The position numbers and the translations under genes were made by a program. 35,809 bases of DNA, taken from positions 1-35,809 of the IMG/VR virus record IMGVR_UViG_3300023196_003104. One strand, given 5' to 3'. The notes under the pieces were generated by a model. The model saw only the letters and a program-made list of their open reading frames with translations. It had not been told where the DNA came from and made no database searches. Of the stretch, positions 6,462 through 35,809 are shown one piece after another (within the stretch, counting starts at the first letter, position 1; each line of letters starts with the position of its first letter). This DNA is from a virus.

Positions 6462-7709
6462 TCATTTACTTTCTTTTAATACTTTAATCAAAACGTTTTC
6501 CATTAAGGCATGAACATCGTTTTCGTTTCTAATATTATAACGCTTTATTACGGCATATGTTTGAGCTTCGTTAAGTCCAAAATAACCTTTAATTTTTTGA
6601 AACACGGATTGTTCTTCTGGCGTTATCTTTGGTGGACCGAGATAACGAGGATCCAATCCGCTAATCGTAGACGCTGCTATGTCGGGATAGTTTGGGTCAA
6701 TTATTCCTCCCAAGTCAGCAATCTTTTTAGAAATTTCTGGACTTGAAACTCCTGCGGCTTTCAACTTTCCAATATATCCTTGAATTGCATCTTGAACTTC
6801 TTTTGATTTTAAAACTTCAACAGTTTTTGTCACGTTAACACTTTGTTGTTTTGGAGATTCGGCACCTTTAATACCACCAGAAACAGGTTGTGCAAGTCCG
6901 GTTAACGCTCTCTTTCCATCATATAGTTCTATAGCACTATATATCTGACCACCCTTCTCTGTTAAGTTTGATATTTCATCATTTATTATTTTTGTAAAGT
7001 TTGGATAACCAAATATATCAGTTAGTCTGTTCAAATCTTCTTCTTTATACATTGGATTTTTCTTAGTTCCAATAGTTTTATATGCATATATCACAACAAA
7101 GCTTTCTAAGTCTTTAATTTGTTCTGGGGTCAAATCTTTTTGATCTCTGTTCAAAAGAGCTATAGCATCATCAATATTATCGATATTTTGTTGTTTTGGT
7201 TGATTTGGATCCTGTGCAGCCGCTGCTGCACTGATTGCCATTGGTCTAGCCGGAACTGTTTTTTCTGCTAAAACTTCTTTGACAATAACATTAATCATCT
7301 CTTTTAGTTGAGCCAATACTTCTTCACGGCTTTTTTCAAATGCTACTGCGCCGCCCATAGGCTTTGCATCTTTTGGTGCATTATTACTTGGAACTCCATC
7401 AGAATAAACTTCCTTTTTAGAAGCTTTCCACTTCTCCCAGTTTTCTTTTTGAACATCAGTCTTAACGTTATCTGGAGATCCAGGTTTATTTGGAACTCGG
7501 CGCTTTCTTGCAACCGCACTCTTTTTTTCTTTTTTGCTCATATTCTTAGCCTTGGTTGCCGGAACACATTTTGGATATTTGCGTGAGCTATCCTTTGCTC
7601 TTACACCTTTATCGGCAGAAGCGCCACAAGCTGGGTGTCCACCGCCTTTTTTCTTGCGGCTAATATCTTTCCAGTCTTGAGAAAACCATTTCCGTAAGTC
7701 TTCGTTCAT
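6462..7709 (-). CDS. Multidomain virion-type protein with basic Cys-containing N-terminus
   Basis: Predicts 415 residues. The first 75 residues (LRKWFSQDWKDISRKKKGGG, then ACGA, YPKC and a Lys/Arg-rich stretch) belong to a small basic domain that I associate with tailed-phage proteins of unknown function. An amphipathic helix follows at about 129-150 (VLAQLKEMINVIVKEVLAEK), then helical segments up to a C-terminal helix (ALMENVLIKVLKESK). No enzyme motif is visible. Its start overlaps the stop of the upstream intein-bearing gene by 4 bases (ATGA), so the two are coupled and probably work together, perhaps inside the head. Function is inferred from layout only. Confidence 0.65.
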   Translation of the reverse strand: MNEDLRKWFSQDWKDISRKKKGGGHPACGASADKGVRAKDSSRKYPKCVPATKAKNMSKKEKKSAVARKRRVPNKPGSPDNVKTDVQKENWEKWKASKKEVYSDGVPSNNAPKDAKPMGGAVAFEKSREEVLAQLKEMINVIVKEVLAEKTVPARPMAISAAAAAQDPNQPKQQNIDNIDDAIALLNRDQKDLTPEQIKDLESFVVIYAYKTIGTKKNPMYKEEDLNRLTDIFGYPNFTKIINDEISNLTEKGGQIYSAIELYDGKRALTGLAQPVSGGIKGAESPKQQSVNVTKTVEVLKSKEVQDAIQGYIGKLKAAGVSSPEISKKIADLGGIIDPNYPDIAASTISGLDPRYLGPPKITPEEQSVFQKIKGYFGLNEAQTYAVIKRYNIRNENDVHALMENVLIKVLKESK

Positions 7710-9796
7710 TTCTTCTTACCTTTCTTACGCCAGCCGCCGCCCTTACCCTTATACCATTTAGCTGCCCAACCATTAGCATAAGCAGAATTACCGGTAACAG
7801 TTATCATGCCATTTTGTTTCATAACCCATGTTCCGTTGACGGTTGTCGGACACCATACATCCATGTTTTCGTAGGTTTCTTTTTGAACGTTCTGACTAGA
7901 TTGAATAGTCCTTTTGCTCATAGACCAGTCACGCATAAACAAATTGTGCGACTTGTTTCTGAAACTGACTCTGTAGCCTAACAAAACAGCGCAGATTTCT
8001 AGAGCGTCCCCGTGATTCTGGTTTTTCTGGCTAAATCCATACCGATTATCTCTACCTTCGTACTTTTCGCTCAACACCTTTTCGTGTCCGTCATATATGA
8101 TGGCTGATGCAAAGAACGCTTCTCTTTGAGCATTGTTCATTGCAATCACTTTTTCGACCCAATTATCTTGATATTTGCTAAAGCTTGCTAGATGCAGAGG
8201 TTCATTTGTATCTTTGATTTTGGCGTTGGTAATGATTCTCATTCTTTTGTTGATATCGCTCGCCTTTACCATGCAACTATCATTCCAATATCTGTAGCAT
8301 CTTGAGTCTATTTCTCCGCTCTTGGTAAATTTTTCATTGTCCCAGTTTTTTTCTAACACCCATTTGTGATCTGGAGTACAAACAAAGTCAAAGTTTGTTT
8401 GTGGTGTCCTGAGACGAATAGTTTCTGCATTTTCGTAGAAGTGTATGTATTCTACCAGTTGCCATTCGGTGTATCCGCTTTGTATGTTGTAGGTTAGAAT
8501 CTCATCATTTATCTTTACATCATGATAAGATTTCCATCCTTTTTTGGTCAGGGCTTGAGAATCAAGTGGCACGCAAGGGTACACGTCGAATTTAGCTCTG
8601 GCAGCAGCCTTAGCTCGGCTCCAAAGGCTTGGATTAGTTGGAGCATTCTCCCCTTCATCTATTCCTTCGTTAAATGTTTCTTCATTTAAAAGATATTCTA
8701 ATAAAGTTTCTATATTCATTTTATTCTCTCTTATACTTGCATTAACACCAACACGATCATCATCTGTAGGAGATTGTCTTAGCCTTCTGGAACCAAGAGG
8801 ATCCTCTCCAAAACTTTCGTAATCTGGATTTACCACTTCATAATCTTGTGGCACAAATTGTTTTGGCCAACCAATAGCGCCAAAACCACCTAATGGACTT
8901 TTTTGTGCTGGAACATAATCTACAGAAGGATTTTGTTCTTCATTCTCACCAAACTGTGGACGCCATGTTTCAGTAGGTGGTTGATCTGGATTAATATGAT
9001 TTCTCCAGGCAGCTAATGAATTAGTTCTGGTATTATTCCATCCTAAACGATCTGGAGTTGTAGCTCTAGGTGCTCCCAATAGTTCCATCAAATATTCATT
9101 AACAACTTCTTGAACTAAATCATAAAAAATTATATCCGAAGCATCTTGTTTATGTTTGATATCAGAACTTATATCAGGATCGGGACCAATAAGCTTATTT
9201 AGTTTTTTATCGATAGGATTTTCGTCTTCAGAAAGTTCTAAAGCTAAAGCACTTGAGTTGCCGGTGACATCATCCATAGGAACCCCATTAAGAGTTGGTC
9301 CAAGATATTCTGCTGGACGTCCATCAATTAGATTTTCATAATCCGCACCGGCATTCATAGGTGTAAAGTTTTGTGGATTTACAAGAGTATTCATTGCAGG
9401 AAAACCTGGCAAATCTCTCATACGGGAAGTGGAATTATCAAAGGCTGCATTTTCTGCAACAGTTTCTACAGAACCATTTCTACCATTCCAATGTGGAACC
9501 GTATCTTTAAAGGCTCTTCCAACTAATCCTTTACCATTAATCCATTCTTGATCTGAGATGTTTTCTTCTGCTTCCTTTTCAGTTTTTTTTCTTATATCTT
9601 CTGTAGCTGGATTAAGACCGAAATGAGCAAGTTGTTTATACCCGCCAACACCATAATTTCCAGTTCCACCAAATGATGGATTGCCCATAAAGTTTGGTCC
9701 GGTATATTCAAGTAACTTTTCTAAATTGGTTTTATTTTTAGGCATGACAATCTTTTTCTTAATTAGCTTCTCTTCTTCTAATTGGTAGGGTTCCAC
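7706..9796 (-). CDS. Phage protein with PSAYANG-type C-terminus, interrupted by an intein
   Basis: Predicts 696 residues from a GTG at 9796; an in-frame ATG at 9745 (MPKNKTNLEKLLEYTG) is an equally plausible start, as neither has a clear ribosome-binding site. Residues 1-407 are acidic and probably largely disordered, with amphipathic helices such as MNIETLLEYLLNEETF near residue 360. Residues 408-670 are an intein. After splicing the host sequence would read FDVYP-SAYANGWAAKWYKGKGG, a short basic domain that recurs at the ends of many tailed-phage proteins of unknown function. The C-extein is only 26 residues, so the intein sits almost at the C-terminus. It is the first gene of a four-gene minus-strand cluster and is divergent from the exonuclease gene at 9847. 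Confidence 0.75.
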   Translation of the reverse strand: MEPYQLEEEKLIKKKIVMPKNKTNLEKLLEYTGPNFMGNPSFGGTGNYGVGGYKQLAHFGLNPATEDIRKKTEKEAEENISDQEWINGKGLVGRAFKDTVPHWNGRNGSVETVAENAAFDNSTSRMRDLPGFPAMNTLVNPQNFTPMNAGADYENLIDGRPAEYLGPTLNGVPMDDVTGNSSALALELSEDENPIDKKLNKLIGPDPDISSDIKHKQDASDIIFYDLVQEVVNEYLMELLGAPRATTPDRLGWNNTRTNSLAAWRNHINPDQPPTETWRPQFGENEEQNPSVDYVPAQKSPLGGFGAIGWPKQFVPQDYEVVNPDYESFGEDPLGSRRLRQSPTDDDRVGVNASIRENKMNIETLLEYLLNEETFNEGIDEGENAPTNPSLWSRAKAAARAKFDVYPCVPLDSQALTKKGWKSYHDVKINDEILTYNIQSGYTEWQLVEYIHFYENAETIRLRTPQTNFDFVCTPDHKWVLEKNWDNEKFTKSGEIDSRCYRYWNDSCMVKASDINKRMRIITNAKIKDTNEPLHLASFSKYQDNWVEKVIAMNNAQREAFFASAIIYDGHEKVLSEKYEGRDNRYGFSQKNQNHGDALEICAVLLGYRVSFRNKSHNLFMRDWSMSKRTIQSSQNVQKETYENMDVWCPTTVNGTWVMKQNGMITVTGNSAYANGWAAKWYKGKGGGWRKKGKKK
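7787..8575 (-). mobile_element. Cis-splicing intein, 263 aa, with degenerate endonuclease region
   Basis: Starts at Cys408 of the host protein (block A, CVPLDSQALTKKGWKSYHDV), has a block B TxxH (CTPDHKW), and ends MITVTGN before the +1 Ser. The penultimate residue is Gly rather than His, a variant seen in some active inteins. At 263 residues it is larger than a minimal intein. The middle contains FFASAIIYDGHE and later GYRVSF, a pattern like a decayed LAGLIDADG endonuclease with only one recognisable motif, so homing activity is probably lost (inference). The boundaries are precise because the exteins join into the PSAYANG motif. Confidence 0.88.
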
Positions 9797-24523: not shown

Positions 24524-27310
24524 TCAGCCCTCGCACCATGTGCATTCTGTTAGTTCTCTCTTGTATACCGCATTACTATTTTGTTCTGCCTTAAGAACAG
24601 ACGTAGAACGAAGATAATAAAGGCTCTTAAGACCGCTTGTAGCTGCTTCCAAATGAACTTGATTGATATACTTTGGATCGCTATTGGCTGGGAAGAATAC
24701 GTTAATGCTCTGCCCTTGATCGATAAACTTTTGTCTTTCAGCGGCTAACTTAATAATAGAGAACTGATTAAGTTCTCTTGCCGTTAGATATACTTCTTTT
24801 TGTTCGGAAGTTAAACATTCTAAATGTTGAACAGAACCATCATTTTTAAGAATAGAACCCCAAACTTCATCGGTATCCTGACCCATACCTTTAAGAAGCT
24901 TCTCAAGTTCTGGATTTCTTCTTACGAATGTTCCTTTTGCACTCTTCTGAGCAAATGCATTAGCAATCCATGGTTCAATACCTTGAGATACATTAGATGC
25001 GATAAGAGAGTTAGATACGGTTGGAGCTATAGCCATAAGAGTAGCATTTCTTCTACCATGACCATTACACCACTCTGGTTCACCATATTCTCTTGCAAGA
25101 TATCCGGTAGCTATTTCAGCTTCTTCTCTAATCTTTTTAAAGATAATCTTATTCTGGAGATAAGCTTGAAGACTATCAAATGCAATCATGTTCTTTTGGA
25201 AGTATGAATGTAGACCAAGGACACCAAGACCAAGAGCACGAGATTTACGAGCAAAACGAAGGGCTTTTTCAAAACCTCTTAAGTTAGCCGCCTTTTGAAT
25301 AAACTCCTCCATAATCCCATCAAGGAACCATACAGATAGTTGAACCGTATCTGTGTCCTTCCATTCATCCCATCTCGCAAGATTAAGAGATGAAAGACAA
25401 CAAACAAATGTATGATCCTTGTCCGTTGGAAGAAATATCTCAGAACAATTTGAAGTTATAAAAGAATTACAAACCCAAACATGTTCTTTTGAATTAACCG
25501 TTGTGCAATATACATCTTGATTGTTTAAGTAAGTTACTGACTTTACTTCGTCATATTTTTTTGTATTATCTCTATATTTTCTTTCTTGAAGAGATTTTCC
25601 TTTATATGCAAGAAATCCTGTAAGTTTATCAAACTTTATTGCATCAGTTTTATTGCTAATATTTAACCGCCAACAGTCTTTTCCGTCAGGCAATAAACTT
25701 TTACCTGCTTTTCTCATTATATATATTTTTGATTCAATTCCGAGATTAGAAAGAATTATTTGTATCTTTCCAAGAAAATCACGATCAATTGAGGCTAGTG
25801 AAAGATATAGAGGATTTCCATGTGATTTGCTGATGTTTATCGTTCCATCTGCGATGTAAAGCCCTCTTAGATATTGAGAAATGGTTTCTTTATCACCTTG
25901 ATAAATCCAGTCTGGCATTACACCTTTTTTAAAACCAAATTGTTTTAACTTATGTGATCCAACACGGATTTTTTGAACAGATGATGATCCAGTATTTTGT
26001 TTAATAAAAGTTGGAATTTTTGTTTTTCTTTTACCAACACTTACGCCAGTTTGATTTTTAACATCATATTCAAGCCAATTCTCTTCAACATAAACTTTCT
26101 TAATTGAATTTTCTATCTCTGAACGAAGTTCAAAATCATTTTCCCAAATATCAATATAAACACATTTGTCGGTCTGTGTGCCATCTGCATGATAAAGACC
26201 TAATAAGAATGCCATTTCCGGCTTGTGTATATTACCAAACAAACCTTCATTGCGTTGAACAAGGATTTTATCTCCAGCTTTAAGCTCCTCGCAAGCAATC
26301 ATTCCACGAGTTGTTTTTACTTTATGATATGATGTAACGTCATGTGTTCGTCCAGATTTTGTAATAATACGATACACAGGAGCATTTTTTTCTATTAGCT
26401 TCATTGGAGAAGCATTTACTTTTTTATTTCCATCAAATAAAGTCAATTCCTCACCAGAAGAAACAAGATCAATGACATTACGTAATCCTTTTGAAGTTAC
26501 AACCATCTGATCTCCGGTTACGCAAAGATTTGAACCCTTAAGTCTTATTCCAGTATTCTTTAATACTTCTGGCGCTTGATCATTCGCATTGTCAGAGAAA
26601 AATATATATGGTTCACCCGTCTCTACACGGCTTTTAACTAATTCCTTCCATCTTCTACGTGCCTCAGTGTCTCCATCCTTAACCTTGGTTATAAAGGCAT
26701 TAGAAACACATACACCGTGATGAAGATTAAGGCATTGACGATTGGTATCGCCAGTTGGTCTACGAGATTGAAGGAACTCGTCAAAATCTCCATGCTCAAT
26801 ATCAATATAAGCGGCACAAGCTCCACGACGAGTAGAACCCTGGGAGATACCAAGAATAACGCTATCTGCCATCTTCATAAATGGAACAACTCCATCTGAA
26901 TGACCACCCTTTGATATCGGCGCTCCCTTTGGACGAATATCATTAATATGTATAGCCGTTCCTCCACCATACTTGGATAGCATTGCTACTTCTTGTAGGG
27001 TTTCAAGGATTTCATATGTGTCATCTGCCATATATGAAGAGAAACAAGAAATAGGAAGACCTCTGTCCGTTCCGGCATTACATAATACTGGCGTAGATGG
27101 ACATAGCCAATTCTTCCATAATATATCAAAAAAACGAGCTTCAAGTTCTGGCTTCTTAAGATAACGAGATACAGTAGATGCTACACGACGATACATCTCT
27201 TTTGGAGTTTCTTCTCCATATAGATAACCGCCACATAAAGTTTGATAAGCAGAGTTTTCAAGCCATTCTGGTGCATCACCAGTAGCTTTTAATTGTTCTA
27301 ATGTCTTCAT
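24524..27310 (-). CDS. nrdA: Class I ribonucleotide reductase large subunit with intein
   Basis: Predicts 928 residues, of which 569 are NrdA after removal of a 359-residue intein. The ATG at 27310 is chosen for its upstream GAAGAG. The extein has the family motifs: ISCFSSYM (first redox Cys), SNL-CSEI (Asn, radical Cys and Glu of the active site), FVCCLSSLNL (second redox Cys), and the C-terminal pair CTWC at residues 923-926 that passes electrons. The N-terminal ATP-cone is missing, so overall activity control by dATP is probably absent. It reduces NDPs to dNDPs with NrdB, whose gene ends 17 bases upstream. Confidence 0.95.
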   Translation of the reverse strand: MKTLEQLKATGDAPEWLENSAYQTLCGGYLYGEETPKEMYRRVASTVSRYLKKPELEARFFDILWKNWLCPSTPVLCNAGTDRGLPISCFSSYMADDTYEILETLQEVAMLSKYGGGTAIHINDIRPKGAPISKGGHSDGVVPFMKMADSVILGISQGSTRRGACAAYIDIEHGDFDEFLQSRRPTGDTNRQCLNLHHGVCVSNAFITKVKDGDTEARRRWKELVKSRVETGEPYIFFSDNANDQAPEVLKNTGIRLKGSNLCVTGDQMVVTSKGLRNVIDLVSSGEELTLFDGNKKVNASPMKLIEKNAPVYRIITKSGRTHDVTSYHKVKTTRGMIACEELKAGDKILVQRNEGLFGNIHKPEMAFLLGLYHADGTQTDKCVYIDIWENDFELRSEIENSIKKVYVEENWLEYDVKNQTGVSVGKRKTKIPTFIKQNTGSSSVQKIRVGSHKLKQFGFKKGVMPDWIYQGDKETISQYLRGLYIADGTINISKSHGNPLYLSLASIDRDFLGKIQIILSNLGIESKIYIMRKAGKSLLPDGKDCWRLNISNKTDAIKFDKLTGFLAYKGKSLQERKYRDNTKKYDEVKSVTYLNNQDVYCTTVNSKEHVWVCNSFITSNCSEIFLPTDKDHTFVCCLSSLNLARWDEWKDTDTVQLSVWFLDGIMEEFIQKAANLRGFEKALRFARKSRALGLGVLGLHSYFQKNMIAFDSLQAYLQNKIIFKKIREEAEIATGYLAREYGEPEWCNGHGRRNATLMAIAPTVSNSLIASNVSQGIEPWIANAFAQKSAKGTFVRRNPELEKLLKGMGQDTDEVWGSILKNDGSVQHLECLTSEQKEVYLTARELNQFSIIKLAAERQKFIDQGQSINVFFPANSDPKYINQVHLEAATSGLKSLYYLRSTSVLKAEQNSNAVYKRELTECTWCEG
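25448..26524 (-). mobile_element. NrdA intein, 359 aa, with LAGLIDADG endonuclease
   Basis: Starts at Cys263 (CVTGDQMVVTSKG, block A), has block B GRTHDVTSYHKV, and ends VWVCNSFITSN before the +1 Cys of the NrdA motif CSEI. Two dodecapeptide motifs, LLGLYHADGT and LRGLYIADGT, lie about 120 residues apart with their Asp residues kept, so the homing endonuclease is probably intact. The +1 residue is the NrdA thiyl-radical cysteine itself. The penultimate residue is Ser instead of His. Confidence 0.93.
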
Positions 27311-27327
27311 ATTATTTTTCTCTTCAA

Positions 27328-28308
27328 TCAAAACATATCATCAAAATTAACAACTCCACGGCTATAATCCGTTGGCTTAACGCTGAAGAAATCATCAAGT
27401 CTTACTCCAGCACCAATAGCATCAAACCATTCCATACGCTTCAATGCATCCTTATCTACATTCTTCCAGTTTTGTTTTAAACCGAGTTTTCCAAGTTGCA
27501 TATTCGTGCGGTGTCTAATAAAGTTTTTAAGATCCTCTTTTGTAAGACCTTCTATATCGCCCTTCTTAAACACATTGTCAATAAAATCATCTTCTAAAGC
27601 CACAGTATCTCGTGCCGCTTGGTAGATATCTTTTTTGAACTCGTCGGTCCAGATTTCCGAATTCTCTTCAATAAAGGTTCTAAACAAATAACAACCAAAC
27701 TCCGAATGTAACGTTTCATCTTTAATGCTCCATGTAACAATCTGGCTCATGCCTTTCATCTTATTATAACGAGAGAAATGCAAAAGAACAGCAAATGAAG
27801 AGAAAAGACTAACGCCTTCCGTAAATCCAGAAAAGACAGCAAGAGACTTAGCCATCATCATCTTCTTTTCTGTTGTCATCTCAGTTGTATCAATATTACC
27901 AGTCTCTACAAGACGATCAATCTTTGCCTTAATAGTAGGTTCAGAAAGAAAAGCCTCGTAATCTTGAAATCCAAGAGTTTCATCAAGTAATGAATAAGCC
28001 TGAGTATGGATGGTTTCAAAAGAAGCCATTGTAGTTGCAGCCATTACGATTTCTGGATGCTGGAACCAACGACCTACTTTATTTGACCAATAATCATTGA
28101 CAAAGATTTCGGTTTGAGTAAACCCCTTTAGAATGCCGCCAATTACCGCCTTTTCTGAAGGCGTAAGGTTCATATTCCAATCAAGAAGATCTTGATTAAG
28201 AGTGACCTCAGAAGAGAGCCAATGTGCCTGCTGTTGCTTAAGCCAATAATCGTAAGCAGGTTGATATAAAAATGGTCGATAATTGATGCGGCGATCTAAT
28301 AGGGACAT
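27328..28308 (-). CDS. nrdB: Class I ribonucleotide reductase small subunit
   Basis: Predicts 326 residues. All ligands of the di-iron centre can be placed with the same spacing as in E. coli NrdB: Glu67, Glu98, His101, Glu163, Glu197 and His200, with the radical Tyr105 in ETIHTQAYSLL. Glu67 replaces the more common Asp, a known variant. The C-terminal tail (VVNFDDMF) fits the acidic/aromatic tail that docks on NrdA. GAGG lies 4 bases before the ATG and overlaps the helicase stop region. It is co-transcribed with helicase (upstream) and nrdA (downstream). Confidence 0.95.
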   Translation of the reverse strand: MSLLDRRINYRPFLYQPAYDYWLKQQQAHWLSSEVTLNQDLLDWNMNLTPSEKAVIGGILKGFTQTEIFVNDYWSNKVGRWFQHPEIVMAATTMASFETIHTQAYSLLDETLGFQDYEAFLSEPTIKAKIDRLVETGNIDTTEMTTEKKMMMAKSLAVFSGFTEGVSLFSSFAVLLHFSRYNKMKGMSQIVTWSIKDETLHSEFGCYLFRTFIEENSEIWTDEFKKDIYQAARDTVALEDDFIDNVFKKGDIEGLTKEDLKNFIRHRTNMQLGKLGLKQNWKNVDKDALKRMEWFDAIGAGVRLDDFFSVKPTDYSRGVVNFDDMF

Positions 28309-29811: not shown

Positions 29812-30828
29812 TTACCTTATAAAATTACGCATCTGTGAACAAAAACGATCATAATCAAAGGTTGAATTGATCCCGCACTCAATAACTGTCTTAATCAAAC
29901 TTAACTTATCCATCTTGGGTTCGTGATTATCTACAATGTAATTTATCTTGTTAATCTGACTAGCACTCATATTGCTGCTATTCAAATACATCAACTCCCA
30001 ATTCCTCCTTATAATATCTTCGCTCTCAGATATAGCATCATATATGGCAATCTTCTTCTTACCGCTATTACCTTGTTTAGCTTCGCTTATAATGTCGGCT
30101 ATCGTTACGTCTTCGGTGCCACTTGCCATTTTAGGAAATCGTTTAGCTACCGTCTTGAACCCCGCACCGGGAACACCAGATACGTTGTCACTATCATCTC
30201 CAGCTATCGTTTTAGCTAAACAAAAGTTCCTTGCAGATATCCCAAACTTAACCATAACCTCAGTTTCATCAATAATCTTTCGAGTTGCAGGATCATATAT
30301 GTTTATATTTGGATTATGTAATAACTGATAAAAATCTTTATCGTTAGAAACAATAATCTTTTTGGCGTTTACATTACGAAACTTGTCTTGAGCAAGATAT
30401 GCAACAATATCGTCACATTCAGTATCTTGCACATAAATCTGACATACGGGCGTGCTCTTCAATAGAGCTGTTAACATGGTGATCTGTTGAACCCTTGTTT
30501 CATCATCCAATGCTAAAACGTCCCGTATGCTCTCCTTGCCTTGTTGGATTTTCTTCACTTCCTTCATCTTGGCTCTATTCGCCTTGTATTCAGGGGAAAT
30601 GTGTCTGCGTCTTTGGGACGCTCCACCGTTTTCCCAAACAACGTATACACGGGATGGGCAGAAGGTTCCAACAAGATAGTCAACGGATTTCATGAACCCA
30701 ACCACTCCACCAACCGGTTGACTATGGAGATTAATTTCTTGATTAACTAAAAAATGGCGAAGAAAATTGTTCAGACCATCAACTATTATTATTGGTCGCT
30801 CCGCCGTTATTTTTGTTTGATTTGTCAT
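29812..30828 (-). CDS. 5'-3' exonuclease (FEN-like, T4 RNase H type)
   Basis: Predicts 338 residues. The acidic metal-binding positions of the PIN-like 5' nuclease family are visible: IIIVDGLNNFLRHF near 13, QDTECDDIVAYLA near 133, IIVSNDKDFYQLL near 158, and the helix-hairpin-helix region IAGDDSDNVSGVPG near 207, which binds the DNA backbone. It removes RNA primers and 5' flaps during replication. Its first 50 bases overlap the 3' end of an HNH endonuclease gene in another frame, and there is no clear ribosome-binding site, so translation may be coupled to that gene. A diverged copy of its N-terminus lies upstream at 31501-31605. Confidence 0.9.
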   Translation of the reverse strand: MTNQTKITAERPIIIVDGLNNFLRHFLVNQEINLHSQPVGGVVGFMKSVDYLVGTFCPSRVYVVWENGGASQRRRHISPEYKANRAKMKEVKKIQQGKESIRDVLALDDETRVQQITMLTALLKSTPVCQIYVQDTECDDIVAYLAQDKFRNVNAKKIIVSNDKDFYQLLHNPNINIYDPATRKIIDETEVMVKFGISARNFCLAKTIAGDDSDNVSGVPGAGFKTVAKRFPKMASGTEDVTIADIISEAKQGNSGKKKIAIYDAISESEDIIRRNWELMYLNSSNMSASQINKINYIVDNHEPKMDKLSLIKTVIECGINSTFDYDRFCSQMRNFIR

Positions 30829-31504
30829 TTAATTTTCTTATTTTGGTTCCAAATGTTTCTGTATTTTTATGACATTCAAGACAAAGCGTTCTGCCATTTG
30901 ATATGTCCCAAATATTGGGATTATTAATTGCCTCAGTTAATGTCTTAATGTCGTAATCTTTTATTAAGAAATGCAAAGGGTATACATGATCTGCATGAAG
31001 AATTGCTCCACCTCTTTTATTGCAATTTTGACAAGTCCAATTGTCCCTGGTGAAAACAGCTTCTCTCCATTCTTTCATCTCATTTGTTCTTCTTATATTT
31101 TTATTTAAAGTTCCTTTTCTTTCATCAGGCGGAACCCAATTTGGATGCTGATTTCCTTTATATTTGCCAGCATATAAACCATTTTTGGCTTCAGACATTT
31201 TTTTTCTGGTTTCTTCTGTGTGAAGACGACCTTTATATTTCCCTTTCATTTTATCAGAATGATCAGGTCTTTTTTTGCCAAAATTTGGATGAGCAGATCC
31301 TTTTTTAGCTTTTGATTGTTTTTTTTTGGTTCTTTCTGATGGTTCTGTCGCTTTTCTTGCTTTTATATCATATTTTTTAAAGATATTGCAAATCGTCTGC
31401 GAGCAACAATTGTAATACTTTCCAATGTCTTTCATTGACCACAACTCAACCAAATACAATCTTTCAAGTTCTTCTTTTGTTATATTAAATACTTGTTTCG
31501 TCAT
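30779..31504 (-). CDS. Free-standing HNH homing endonuclease
   Basis: Predicts 241 residues. An N-terminal helix-turn-helix (LVELWSMKDIGKYYNC...TICNIFKKY, about 16-45) is followed by repeated basic motifs (FGKKRPDHSDKMKGK and HTEETRKKMSEAK, NUMOD3-like, about 70-115) and a C-terminal HNH nuclease with CQNCNKRGG, LHADHVYPL and NGRTLCLECHKN. Such enzymes cut a target gene and spread with it. The start overlaps the stop of a 34-aa exonuclease fragment (ATGA) and the end overlaps the real exonuclease start by 50 bases, so the gene is wedged precisely at the 5' end of the exonuclease. Confidence 0.9.
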   Translation of the reverse strand: MTKQVFNITKEELERLYLVELWSMKDIGKYYNCCSQTICNIFKKYDIKARKATEPSERTKKKQSKAKKGSAHPNFGKKRPDHSDKMKGKYKGRLHTEETRKKMSEAKNGLYAGKYKGNQHPNWVPPDERKGTLNKNIRRTNEMKEWREAVFTRDNWTCQNCNKRGGAILHADHVYPLHFLIKDYDIKTLTEAINNPNIWDISNGRTLCLECHKNTETFGTKIRKLNDKSNKNNGGATNNNS

Positions 31505-32478: not shown

Positions 32479-32504
32479 AAATAATCTTTTAAATCTAAAA
32501 TTGA

Positions 32505-32547
32505 AAACGCCGCCTGAAAGTTAATTCAAAGCGGCGTTTCTTTTTTC
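32505..32547. terminator. Rho-independent terminator, GCCGC family
   Basis: AAACGCCGC (32505-32513) pairs with GCGGCGTTT (32531-32539), with an inner TGAA/TTCA helix, then TTTCTTTTTT on the plus strand. It ends the 31723 gene and may also act on dut. Nearly the same hairpin occurs at 35761. Confidence 0.88.
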
Positions 32548-32560
32548 TATCTCTTATGTT

Positions 32561-33109
32561 TCACTTGCCAGACGAACCGAACCCAGCAGAACCTCTATTG
32601 GTTTCCGTTATCTTATTTGTTTCACTCATAATCACTTCTCCAGCGGTTGATACCTTATATACAACTAACTGTGCTATTCTATCACCAACGCTAAATATAA
32701 CGTCTTCTGAACCCATATTGACAAGGGTAACGCCTATCTCACCACGATAATTTGGATCTACAATTCCACCAACAGGGAATACTCCCTTACTGGCTAAACC
32801 ACTACGTCCCTCTATCTTCATAAAAATACGATTACGATCCATATCCATTATTGGCATATCTGCAAGTTGAATACCAGTTGCCATCTTTTTTACAGTTCCG
32901 GCTGGAATGGTAACATTCTCAGAACAATAAACATCAAAACCAATATCTCCCTCTCTTACTGCATGAGGGATTTTAGCATCTTCGTTCATTCGCTTGAATT
33001 TAATATCAAGCGTTCTGGATACCTTTGGTATTTGAGGATCATACCAATTTTTATCAACGGTTCTATAAGAACTTTGTGCTATAGATTCACTTATATTATT
33101 ATTACTCAT
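32561..33109 (-). CDS. dut: dUTPase (trimeric type)
   Basis: Predicts 182 residues with all five motifs of trimeric dUTPases in order: GDIGFDVY, EGRSGLASKG, GGIVDPNYRGEIGV (with catalytic Asp and the beta-hairpin Tyr), GDRIAQLVV, and NRGSAGFGSSGK. It hydrolyses dUTP to dUMP and pyrophosphate, keeping uracil out of DNA and feeding ThyX. A 35-residue N-terminal extension is polar and has no recognised role. AGGAG lies close before the ATG. It is separated from the recA C-half by a structured 100-base gap. Confidence 0.95.
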   Translation of the reverse strand: MSNNNISESIAQSSYRTVDKNWYDPQIPKVSRTLDIKFKRMNEDAKIPHAVREGDIGFDVYCSENVTIPAGTVKKMATGIQLADMPIMDMDRNRIFMKIEGRSGLASKGVFPVGGIVDPNYRGEIGVTLVNMGSEDVIFSVGDRIAQLVVYKVSTAGEVIMSETNKITETNRGSAGFGSSGK

Positions 33110-33126
33110 ATTTCTCCTATTAAAGA

Positions 33127-33182
33127 AACAAAGGCGACAACCTTGTAACTCTATCTCTAAAGTTTAGATTACCGCCTTTGTT
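33127..33182 (-). terminator. Long structured hairpin between recA C-half and dut
   Basis: AACAAAGGCG (33127-33136) pairs perfectly with CGCCTTTGTT (33173-33182). The 36-base loop contains smaller self-complementary parts, and the minus strand continues into TTTCTTT. It is probably a terminator with an elaborate loop; a regulatory RNA leader for dut is an alternative. Confidence 0.6.
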
Positions 33183-33211
33183 TTGGGTGTTATGTGTTAG
33201 GTGTTTTTTTT

Positions 33212-34108
33212 TCAGGCGCTTAACTCGTCCGCCGTTCTTACGTCGCCATCCGATATCCCCTCATACGTGAGATGATCCTCTGGCTTGTCATTACCGCTAA
33301 GGATGAGTGCAGCATCCATCAAAGCACTAACATACTCTGAGTATTCTGGCTTGTTCAGAACTTTCTGGGCAAACTCATTTTTATAGAACTTAACTTCGGT
33401 TTCTACTTCGCCAGTCTTAAGATCAGTTACAGTAAAACTCTTCCAAGCCCCATCTCCAGTAATGGATGTGGACTTATCTCCTACAACAACTCCATTCTTT
33501 GTATTTTTGCAATGTTCACGAAGAAGATCAAACGTCTCTTCTTCTTCAAAGATGCCACGTCCAAACAAAATACGGAAACCAACCTTACGGAAAGGTTTTG
33601 CTACCTTGTTTTTAATGGTCTTTGCAGTTACGTTGATCCCAATAACGTTATCGTCTTTATCTTTAATAGCAGAACCACCATCAAGACGAATTCTAACAGA
33701 TGAAGAATATGGAATTGCCATACCTCCAGATGTTGTCGTATTATGATTAATTTGACCTTCAGCAAGGTAACAATGTGTATTTGCAACCTGGCAATCAACA
33801 ACTTGGATTGATTGTTTAACCAACTCAGCCCCTGGATGGTCTGCAAGCCTTACGTAATCTTTTCCAAGAAGGACTTTGTGATCAGCGGTGCCATGTAATG
33901 TGTTCAACTGATAATGTTCAGTTGCATTCTTTTTAACTACGTATGCCTCTAAATCTTGCCACACTTCTTTTCCAGTTTCCTGATCATATGATAAGATTTG
34001 ATATCCTTCATCTCTAATATCATACTCTTCTGGAGTATTTAAATCTTCTATTCCCAATCGTTTTGCTAAAGCTCTAAACGATATTTCTTCTTCTATGTAT
34101 TCTTCCAT
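33212..34108 (-). CDS. recA: RecA C-terminal half with N-terminal split-intein C-fragment
   Basis: Predicts 298 residues. Residues 1-123 are an intein C-fragment ending GQINHN. From residue 124 the sequence is the RecA C-terminal core (TTTSGGMAIPYSSSVRIRLD, then KVAKPFRKVGFRILFGRGI), which follows the Walker-B/L2 region of RecA. This part alone lacks Walker A and cannot be active; it must be joined to the product of 34911-35657. GGGAG lies 7 bases before its ATG inside the HNH gene, whose stop overlaps this start by 16 bases. The C-terminus is acidic, as in RecA. Confidence 0.93.
   Translation of the reverse strand: MEEYIEEEISFRALAKRLGIEDLNTPEEYDIRDEGYQILSYDQETGKEVWQDLEAYVVKKNATEHYQLNTLHGTADHKVLLGKDYVRLADHPGAELVKQSIQVVDCQVANTHCYLAEGQINHNTTTSGGMAIPYSSSVRIRLDGGSAIKDKDDNVIGINVTAKTIKNKVAKPFRKVGFRILFGRGIFEEEETFDLLREHCKNTKNGVVVGDKSTSITGDGAWKSFTVTDLKTGEVETEVKFYKNEFAQKVLNKPEYSEYVSALMDAALILSGNDKPEDHLTYEGISDGDVRTADELSA
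33740..34108 (-). mobile_element. Split intein C-fragment (Int-C), 123 aa
   Basis: Carries block B in the form LHGTADHKVLL (TxxH near residue 74-77), block F VVDCQVANTHCYL, and block G GQINHN with penultimate His and terminal Asn; the +1 residue is Thr. Only the first strand of the intein with Cys1 is missing, and this is supplied by the fragment at 34914-34961. The total intein would be 139 residues, a minimal size without endonuclease. Confidence 0.92.
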
Positions 34109-34914
34109 TTTAAGGCTCCCGTTCCATGTGTTGGTTGTTTATGGTGACATATTTTACAGAGCGTTCTACCATTGTCTCTATTCCATAACTCTCTACACTC
34201 TAAAGCGTTTTCTAATGAAGATATACCGTTTTCTAAAAGAATGACTGAAAATGGTTTTATATGATCTGCCTGTATATCTTCTCTATTTTGACATAGGATA
34301 CATGTAAATTTATCACGCTCAAATATATCAAGTCGCCAAGCTTTATATTTGTCATGCTTTCTTATTGATTCTACGAGTTTTGTTTTGCCGCCCTTCCAGT
34401 TTCCATTTTCTTCACCATACTTTGGATTAATTTTACTGTAAGCACTAAGATTTTTTTTAATTTTTTCTAAATGTTCTCCGGATGGAGAGTATCTTGGTTT
34501 GGATACCGGCACAATATCATAACATGGAGCAAGCTTACAAATGATCTTTCTTACTTGACGACATTCCAAAGCCAAATCCTCTGCGATTGTTTTATAAGGT
34601 ACCTGTTCTTTGCTTCGAGAGATAATCGTCTCAAAAACATCCGGCGACAAGTTCTGTGGCAAAAACCTTATCTGTTCGTGTTTACAATATTCTGTCAAAT
34701 AACGAGAATAGACCTTCTTTGACAGTTCCAGAGTAGATAAAATCCATTTTTCCGGAACATATCTCTTTTCCCAATATTCTTGAAGACGTTTCAAAGTTTC
34801 GGCATCAAGGTGCTTAAGTCGTGCTTTGCCAATATTTCTTCGCCTCTCTTCCGAGTAGCTAAAGATTGGTAGCTTGTCTTTCCTATACCGATTTTTACTC
34901 TCTGTTGTCATCAT
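34093..34914 (-). CDS. Free-standing HNH endonuclease inside the split recA
   Basis: Predicts 273 residues. The N-terminal two thirds are basic and helical, with HTH-like segments (for example YKTIAEDLALECRQVRKIIC near 117) for target recognition. The C-terminus is an HNH domain: FTCILCQ, DIQADHIKPF, and NRDNGRTLCKICHHKQ with zinc-type CxxC pairs. The start overlaps the recA-N stop by 4 bases (ATGA) and the end overlaps the recA-C start by 16 bases. Its position exactly between the intein halves fits a homing enzyme that targets intein-less recA genes (inference). Confidence 0.9.
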   Translation of the reverse strand: MMTTESKNRYRKDKLPIFSYSEERRRNIGKARLKHLDAETLKRLQEYWEKRYVPEKWILSTLELSKKVYSRYLTEYCKHEQIRFLPQNLSPDVFETIISRSKEQVPYKTIAEDLALECRQVRKIICKLAPCYDIVPVSKPRYSPSGEHLEKIKKNLSAYSKINPKYGEENGNWKGGKTKLVESIRKHDKYKAWRLDIFERDKFTCILCQNREDIQADHIKPFSVILLENGISSLENALECRELWNRDNGRTLCKICHHKQPTHGTGALKWKNT

Positions 34915-35657
34915 CCTACGATTTTACGACGGATCTTAATGGTTGTGTCAGGAGTCACGCACGGATCTCCGAACATGACTCCTATCTTTTGTCTCTGCTG
35001 TGATACGAGCACTAACAAAACCTTTTGACCGCCAATAACGTTAGCAATCTTTCTCATACCTTTTGAAAGAACACGTGCTTGAAGACCAATTGTGTTTTGG
35101 TCATAGTCTCCCTCTAACTCAGCCTTTGGGGAAGACTGAGAGACGCTATCCCACATAACAGTTACAGGAACGTCTTTTGTCATTGTGCGAGCTTTTAGGA
35201 TAGTGCTTTCTATTACTGAAAGAATTTCTTCTGTGCAAGCAGATTGAACGAATACAAACTTTTTTGCTACATCAACGCCCATATTAGCAAGAGTATCTGG
35301 ATTTGTAGCATTCTCAGTATCAATATAAACAGCAATGCCACCCATTCTTTGAGTAGAACGGGCTATTTGAGCCATTAGCGTTGATTTACCTATGCCTGGT
35401 GGACCTTGTATTTCTACAATACGTCCTTCTGGTAAACCACCACCTCTGCGATTAGCTATAACATAATCAAGCTGACGAGAACCGGTAGAAATCCAACGAT
35501 GAACATATGTTGGTGCATCATCTACACCAAGATTGAAAGCAATCTTATCATTGTGTTCTTTATTGATTGCTTTGATAAGATCTGACGAGAAATCGTCTAT
35601 TACTCCATCTTGAACAGTTGTTGCTGTATCTCCTGATTTTTTTGTTGGTTTTGCCAT
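34911..35657 (-). CDS. recA: RecA N-terminal half ending in split-intein N-fragment
   Basis: Predicts 248 residues from the ATG at 35657, with AAGGA 5 bases upstream; an in-frame TTG at 35675 overlaps that site and is rejected. Residues 1-232 are RecA: Walker A GPPGIGKS at 85-92, YIDTENATNP near 111, Walker B VTVMWDSVSQ, and LVLVSQQRQKIGVMFGDP leading into the L2 region. Residues 233-248 (CVTPDTTIKIRRKIVG) are the intein N-fragment, then TGA. Trans-splicing with the 33212-34108 product would give a RecA of 407 residues that reads GVMFGDP-TTTSGG. RecA/UvsX proteins drive strand exchange and recombination-dependent replication. Confidence 0.94.
   Translation of the reverse strand: MAKPTKKSGDTATTVQDGVIDDFSSDLIKAINKEHNDKIAFNLGVDDAPTYVHRWISTGSRQLDYVIANRRGGGLPEGRIVEIQGPPGIGKSTLMAQIARSTQRMGGIAVYIDTENATNPDTLANMGVDVAKKFVFVQSACTEEILSVIESTILKARTMTKDVPVTVMWDSVSQSSPKAELEGDYDQNTIGLQARVLSKGMRKIANVIGGQKVLLVLVSQQRQKIGVMFGDPCVTPDTTIKIRRKIVG
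34914..34961 (-). mobile_element. Split intein N-fragment (Int-N), only 16 aa
   Basis: CVTPDTTIKIRRKIVG. Cys1 begins the intein, and VTPDT matches the usual block A start. It ends with a stop codon that overlaps the HNH start. Its continuation is EEYIEEEIS at the start of the Int-C ORF. Confidence 0.9.
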
Positions 35658-35677
35658 GTGTTTCCTTCTTTCCAATC

Positions 35678-35706
35678 ATCATATACCAGCCGCCCCTAAA
35701 CGTAAA
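35678..35706 (-). promoter_or_regulatory. Sigma70-like promoter for recA
   Basis: On the minus strand: TTTACG (35701-35706), a 17-base spacer, then TATGAT (35678-35683), with a normal leader of about 15 bases containing AAGGA. Confidence 0.55.
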
Positions 35707-35760
35707 CTGAAATGTGATGAAAAAAGAATATATATATTGGATAAACAATGTTAAAAGTTA

Positions 35761-35800
35761 AACGCCGCCTGGATTTCTCCAAAGCGGCGTTTCTTTTTTT
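35761..35800. terminator. Rho-independent terminator, GCCGC family
   Basis: AACGCCGC (35761-35768) pairs with GCGGCGTT (35784-35791), with an inner TGGA/TCCA helix, then TTCTTTTTTT on the plus strand. No plus-strand gene lies just before it, so it probably serves a minus-strand gene beyond the window edge, using the weaker T-rich tract on that strand. The 35707-35760 stretch is AT-rich and I see no gene in it. Confidence 0.75.
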
Positions 35801-35809
35801 ATTCTCTCA

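What the first reader, a model, noticed from the sequence alone, without database searches (positions are those of the whole stretch)
33212..35657. RecA is a fractured gene: two ORFs joined by a split intein, with an HNH gene between
Seen directly: recA-N stops after 16 intein residues, and recA-C starts with the rest of the intein. The extein ends (GVMFGDP and TTTSGG) meet exactly where uninterrupted RecA proteins read GVMFGxPETTTGG. The HNH gene lies between the halves and overlaps both. Known: fractured genes with split inteins and free-standing endonucleases have been described in phage-rich metagenomes, for helicase, terminase and nucleotide reductase genes. A RecA example with an HNH enzyme would make an essential recombinase depend on trans-splicing.
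Basis: partly seen in the sequence, partly recalled or inferred. Interest (0 to 1): 0.9.

Follow-up and report, generated by a model that had tools for sequence, protein, structure and literature searches.

The report
Phage RecA gene broken by split intein
In this phage the gene for the DNA-repair protein RecA is broken in two by a mobile self-splicing element that carries its own DNA-cutting enzyme, and relatives show the same spot empty, whole, split, or with the cutter swapped, damaged or lost, so one site seems to show the life cycle of such an element.

Summary
On the minus strand, recA-N (34911-35657) ends with a 16-residue intein N-fragment. recA-C (33212-34108) begins with a 123-residue intein C-fragment. 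A 273-aa HNH gene lies between them and overlaps both. Uninterrupted relatives join the two extein ends exactly at GVMFGDP^TTTSGG. One IMG/VR contig with a related split intein plus HNH gene differs from an empty-site contig by only about 0.4-1.6% over 5 kb, apart from the ~1.23-kb insertion. All intein catalytic residues are present, the intein evolves under strong constraint (dN/dS about 0.1), and a contiguous homologue folds as a Hint/intein domain. No second recA is seen in contigs of 55-172 kb that carry the same or a related split. The best reading is a fractured gene: RecA made by protein trans-splicing, with a free-standing HNH homing endonuclease. The kind is known (fractured genes; atypically split inteins; PolB/HNH in phage MIJ3), so this is a new member. 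The added value is the natural series at one RecA site: empty, contiguous mini-intein, split with HNH, with broken or deleted HNH, with Vsr-like endonuclease. Splicing and cleavage were not shown.

The parts
34962..35657 (-). recA N-extein, 232 aa, with Walker A (GPPGIGKST), ending GVMFGDP in the L2 loop region
   Evidence: Pfam RecA E 2.3e-39, phrog_97 UvsX-like 3.3e-48; 96% identical to uninterrupted relatives
34914..34961 (-). intein N-fragment, 16 aa CVTPDTTIKIRRKIVG (Cys1, block A); stop TGA at 34911-34913
   Evidence: conserved in split relatives (14-18 aa) and as the start of contiguous mini-intein L017; stop codons differ among relatives (TGA, TAG, TAA) so this is not recoding
34093..34914 (-). 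free-standing HNH endonuclease gene, 273 aa: helical N-terminal part that looks like helix-turn-helix, then C-terminal HNH with CxxC...DH...N...CxxCH
   Evidence: phrog_8446 1.2e-10, phrog_589 1.6e-10; Pfam HNH 0.001, below its cut-off; motif invariant in 4 homologues; dN/dS 0.21 overall, 0.08 in the HNH third
33740..34108 (-). intein C-fragment, 123 aa: block B GTADH (T74, H77), D105, C-terminal His122-Asn123
   Evidence: these residues invariant in 10 homologues; dN/dS 0.106 against L003; AlphaFold model of contiguous homologue L017 is an intein fold
33215..33739 (-). recA C-extein, 175 aa, starting Thr+1 (TTTSGG); stop 33212-33214
   Evidence: Pfam RecA 1.8e-11, TIGR02012 1.1e-14; 92% identical to uninterrupted relatives
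34116..34120 (-). GGGAG, likely ribosome-binding site of recA-C, inside the end of the HNH gene
   Evidence: read directly; a near-identical stretch (CAGGAGCC) is kept in L006 although the rest of its HNH gene is deleted

Best explanation
A mini-intein sits in the L2 DNA-binding loop of a phage RecA/UvsX-like recombinase and is split just after its second beta strand (the S1 position) by an HNH endonuclease gene. The three overlapping genes are translated from one message, probably by coupled initiation. The basic 16-aa N-fragment on RecA-N binds the acidic 123-aa C-fragment on RecA-C and completes the Hint fold. Cys1 and Thr+1 are then expected to act as nucleophiles, with block-B His77 and His122-Asn123 finishing excision, giving a 407-aa RecA. 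The HNH protein is expected to cut or nick intein-less recA in co-infecting phages, so repair copies IntN-HNH-IntC into the site. Shown here: anatomy, exact site, mobility of this kind of cassette between recA alleles, constraint, fold of a contiguous homologue, and loss of the endonuclease with the split kept. Inferred: trans-splicing, cleavage specificity, current HNH activity.
For: Exact empty sites. L008 (split plus HNH, 45-46% HNH identity to the window's) against empty L014/L012: 98.4-99.7% nt over about 5 kb, with the breakpoint exactly at the junction. Discordant histories: IntC is 88.8% identical to L003 and 68.7% to L008 (Fisher p 1.7e-10), whereas the adjoining C-extein is 77.5% and 89.5% (p 1.9e-7); protein trees agree in placing the window's intein with L003/L006/L007 (98/98) and its RecA with the empty alleles, the latter with modest support. 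Splicing residues invariant in 10 homologues. dN/dS of IntC about 0.11. Contiguous homologue L017: pLDDT 89, and the leading PDB matches, including all those under E 0.001, are inteins or intein-like Hint domains, best E 4e-6. L006 has lost 724 nt of the HNH gene and L035/L111/L112 carry a TAA stop inside it, yet both recA halves stay open. No second recA in contigs of 55, 123, 137 and 172 kb with the same or a related split.
Against: No ligated product, mRNA or cleavage was seen. Intein models in Pfam do not detect the window's joined intein sequence on its own, and no PDB sequence matches it; the assignment rests on homologues, motifs and the fold of a contiguous relative. The window is a 35.8-kb fragment, so a second recA elsewhere in this phage is not excluded. 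The HNH gene is found only at this site in IMG/VR with the patterns used, so its target is inferred from position.
Confidence: 0.92

Rival explanations
1. Two-piece RecA without splicing: the halves associate and work as a heteromer, as in phage genes split by free-standing endonucleases (Aeh1 nrdA with mobE, T4 topoisomerase with mobA), and the intein ends are inert remnants.
For: Such non-spliced split enzymes exist in T4-like phages (PMC2988022).
Against: All splicing residues are kept and the intein is under purifying selection as strong as the extein's (dN/dS 0.106 against 0.099 for the C-extein in the same pair), also where the endonuclease is lost. The break falls in the conserved L2 loop.
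Confidence: 0.04
2. Decaying or defective gene: recA was broken by the insertion and the phage relies on host RecA.
For: Some relatives carry broken or deleted HNH genes, and the window is a fragment.
Against: Both RecA halves are open and constrained in every complete split copy read here; only the endonuclease decays. The N-extein is 94-97% identical to intact relatives.
Confidence: 0.02
3. RNA-level or translational joining (group I/II intron, frameshift or stop read-through) makes one chain.
For: Overlapping ORFs could in principle allow frameshifting; in L018 the endonuclease is in frame with IntC.
Against: No Rfam match in 32500-35809. Stop codons differ among relatives. The intein part is coding and conserved. 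In L020 an AT-rich gap of about 150 nt separates the halves.
Confidence: 0.02

Closest known systems
Fractured genes with split inteins and free-standing endonucleases (Dassa et al. 2009, doi 10.1093/nar/gkp095; not held here, content from memory and from papers citing it)
   Same: Gene for a DNA-metabolism enzyme broken by a split intein with an endonuclease gene between the halves; phage-like source; Vsr-like endonucleases in sister loci found here (L015, L016; L075 at a neighbouring site).
   Different: The window has an HNH enzyme and a 16-aa N-fragment split. I could not check whether recA/uvsX is among the eight enzyme types of that paper.
Atypically split inteins of the VidaL type (16-aa IntN, S1 site; PMC13014065)
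   Same: Same N-fragment length; split after beta strand 2; Cys1.
   Different: From memory, UvsX split inteins from Lake Vida were among those named.
PolB split intein with HNH gene of Pseudomonas phage MIJ3 (PMC6892783)
   Same: Three-gene layout: N-half, HNH homing endonuclease, C-half, with a split intein.
   Different: Host gene is DNA polymerase B; block A starts with Ser; most of the intein lies on the N-half.
Mycobacterial RecA inteins
   Same: Inteins in RecA.
   Different: Contiguous, with a nested endonuclease domain (general knowledge). The NCBI model for the intein-containing RecA aligns without a break through this site, so that intein lies elsewhere in RecA.

Membership tests
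Fractured gene with split intein and free-standing endonuclease | Conserved enzyme gene broken into two ORFs whose exteins join exactly | tested here: met
   Zero-gap uninterrupted homologues, 92-96% identical
Fractured gene with split intein and free-standing endonuclease | Split intein with N-fragment on one ORF and C-fragment on the other, with splicing residues | tested here: met
   Cys1, T74/H77, H122-N123, Thr+1; invariant in homologues; fold of a contiguous homologue
Fractured gene with split intein and free-standing endonuclease | Separate endonuclease gene between the halves | tested here: met
   HNH ORF with its own start and stop; PHROG HNH families
Fractured gene with split intein and free-standing endonuclease | Protein trans-splicing occurs | not testable with these tools
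   Needs co-expression
Atypically split intein (S1 site) | IntN of about 15-37 aa ending after beta strand 2 | tested here: met
   16 aa; aligned to the L017 model the split falls between strands 7-12 and 15-20
HNH homing endonuclease | Intact HNH motif | tested here: met
   C205..C208, D217-H218, N245/N248, C253, C256-H257 invariant in four homologues
HNH homing endonuclease | Cuts or nicks the empty allele and moves its element | tested here: inconclusive
   Near-isogenic filled/empty contigs (for relative L008) and intein/extein discordance show mobility; cleavage not testable
Vsr-like (EDxHD) homing endonuclease | Vsr/DUF559-like nuclease domain | tested here: not met
   Window enzyme has no such match; sister loci show it, mostly weakly (L015, L016, L075, L089)

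The most novel reading that the evidence does not exclude
Trans-splicing of RecA at its DNA-binding loop acts as a switch: the halves assemble and splice mainly when single-stranded DNA or recombination demand is high, so the phage times its recombinase, and the element times the repair on which its own homing depends. A precedent for ssDNA-stimulated splicing is the recombinase intein of Lennon 2016 (Pyrococcus RadA, from memory; title cited in PMC7765530).
Probability: 0.08. Interest if true: 0.85.

Novelty: new member of a known kind. Interest (0 to 1): 0.5.

Why it matters
It puts a phage recombinase under the control of a selfish element that, in T4-like systems, needs RecA or UvsX to spread (PMC2988022). 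More generally, natural alleles at one RecA codon junction show empty, contiguous, split, HNH-bearing, Vsr-bearing, endonuclease-dead and endonuclease-lost states. How split inteins and broken genes arise and persist can be tested directly with these natural sequences. Short 14-18-aa N-fragments are also useful protein-ligation tags.

Tried and rejected
PDB sequence search with the joined intein: nothing. Pfam on the joined window intein: only a chance hit; only the contiguous homologue L017 gave a sub-threshold Intein_splicing hit. HNH AlphaFold model is weak (mean pLDDT 64), and Foldseek gave no significant match. Rfam: no RNA element. Promoter/terminator scan: only consensus matches, with no support for a dedicated HNH promoter. 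Bacterial and archaeal genomes: no IntC relative with the patterns used. Isolated phages: no IntC match; HNH only by distant C-terminal matches. Dassa 2009, Burton 2020, Carvajal-Vallejos 2012 and Aranko 2014 were not in the library. Net charges (IntN +3 to +5, IntC start -2 to -9) fit electrostatic pairing, but the contiguous L017 intein looks similarly charged there, so charge is not evidence for adaptation to the split state.

Full report
WHAT IS THERE. On the minus strand, recA-N (34911-35657) codes for 232 RecA residues ending in GVMFGDP plus CVTPDTTIKIRRKIVG. The HNH gene (34093-34914) starts on the recA-N stop (ATGA) and runs 16 nt into recA-C. recA-C (33212-34108) codes for 123 intein residues ending in INHN and 175 RecA residues starting TTTSGG. 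Both halves match RecA models at adjoining positions. The window is an IMG/VR virus record of 35,809 bases, without another recA.

EMPTY SITES AND MOBILITY. In 67 of 80 RecA relatives fetched from IMG/VR the two extein parts are directly adjacent; 12 are interrupted and one contig ends. The closest uninterrupted ones are 96% (N) and 92% (C) identical in protein. L008 carries a related split intein with its own HNH gene (intein C-fragment 72%, HNH 45-46% identical to the window's). Outside the ~1.23-kb insertion it is 98.4-99.6% identical to empty L014 over 5 kb, and the alignment breaks exactly at the splice junction. The window's IntC is closest to L003/L006/L007 while its C-extein is closest to L008 and the empty alleles, both differences highly significant and reflected in trees, although the extein grouping that holds the window has only modest support. 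The cassette therefore moves between recA alleles.

THE INTEIN. IntN plus IntC aligns along its length with the contiguous 133-aa mini-intein of L017. Block B Thr and His, the block F Asp and the final His-Asn are invariant in ten homologues. AlphaFold models L017 at pLDDT 89, and Foldseek returns inteins and intein-like Hint domains as the leading PDB matches, best E 4e-6. The split falls in the turn after the second strand, the S1 position of other atypically split inteins, whose known IntN are 15-37 aa, VidaL being 16 (PMC13014065). IntC has dN/dS 0.106, like the C-extein's 0.099 in the same pair. Stop codons ending recA-N differ between relatives (TGA, TAG, TAA), which argues against read-through.

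A SERIES AT ONE SITE. At the same junction I find: empty (L009-L014, L024 and others); contiguous mini-inteins (L017, L119); split with HNH (window, L003, L004, and L005 in part; L007, L008); split with an HNH gene stopped by TAA (L035, L111, L112); split with the HNH gene deleted by 724 nt, leaving its last 25 or so codons and the ribosome-binding site for recA-C (L006); split with a Vsr-like endonuclease (L015, L016); endonuclease fused in frame to IntC (L018); and endonuclease lost (L020). The HNH-bearing inteins form one clade (98/96). The HNH genes look modular: codons 141-172 differ sharply between window and L003 (dN 0.55) while the flanks have dN about 0.03-0.05. The endonuclease can thus be lost or broken while the split persists, and it differs between clades.

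SOLE RECA. Contigs of 55 kb (L006), 137 kb (L016), 172 kb (L018) and 123 kb (L075, a split intein at the neighbouring site) hold the two halves and no intact recA. These are not known to be complete genomes.

MECHANISM. Most likely the genes are co-translated, the fragments assemble, and Cys1/Thr+1 chemistry yields a 407-aa RecA; the HNH protein drives, or drove, homing. Trans-splicing and cleavage are inferred. T4 homing needs RecA or UvsX (PMC2988022), so the element interrupts a function it probably needs, and splicing is a condition for its own spread (inference).

KNOWN OR NEW. The arrangement belongs to the fractured genes of Dassa et al. 2009 (not readable here). An HNH version in PolB of phage MIJ3 is published (PMC6892783). 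From memory, UvsX split inteins of the VidaL group have been named. I therefore call it a new member of a known kind. The same-site series and the near-isogenic filled/empty contigs are the most useful part. No IntC relative was found in the phage isolate collection or in prokaryote genomes with the patterns used.

Noticed in passing
L015:2696-5867 (same contig as L076): RecA with two inteins 7 extein residues apart: a contiguous one at KIG^TMYGDPS, which must splice in cis, and a split one just after it, which must splice in trans, with a Vsr-like endonuclease between the halves.
   Followed up: partly
L119:2840-4879 (also L120): RecA with two contiguous inteins, one inside the Walker A P-loop (GLEA^...^SGKS) and one at the L2 site.
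   Followed up: no
L029, L030, L070, L095 (contiguous); L075 (split plus endonuclease): A second intein family sits about four residues upstream in RecA (KIG^TMFGDP); L075 is a split version with a Vsr/DUF559-like endonuclease gene.
   Followed up: partly
L089:4557-5678: An endonuclease gene (DUF559/Vsr-like, 295 aa) breaks recA a few codons after the L2 site with no visible intein; stand-alone insert or intron.
   Followed up: no
L018:4002-5852: Vsr-like endonuclease in frame with IntC and RecA-C as one long ORF; whether it is translated as a fusion or from an internal start is unknown.
   Followed up: no
window 24524-27331 (-): Ribonucleotide reductase large subunit with a contiguous LAGLIDADG intein.
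   Followed up: partly
window 7706-9796 (-): Protein without a family match that appears to carry a contiguous intein (CVPLDSQ... to ...VTGN^S) with a degraded endonuclease region.
   Followed up: no
window 30779-31504 (-): Second HNH gene (NUMOD3 plus HNH) overlapping the start of the exonuclease gene 29812-30828.
   Followed up: partly
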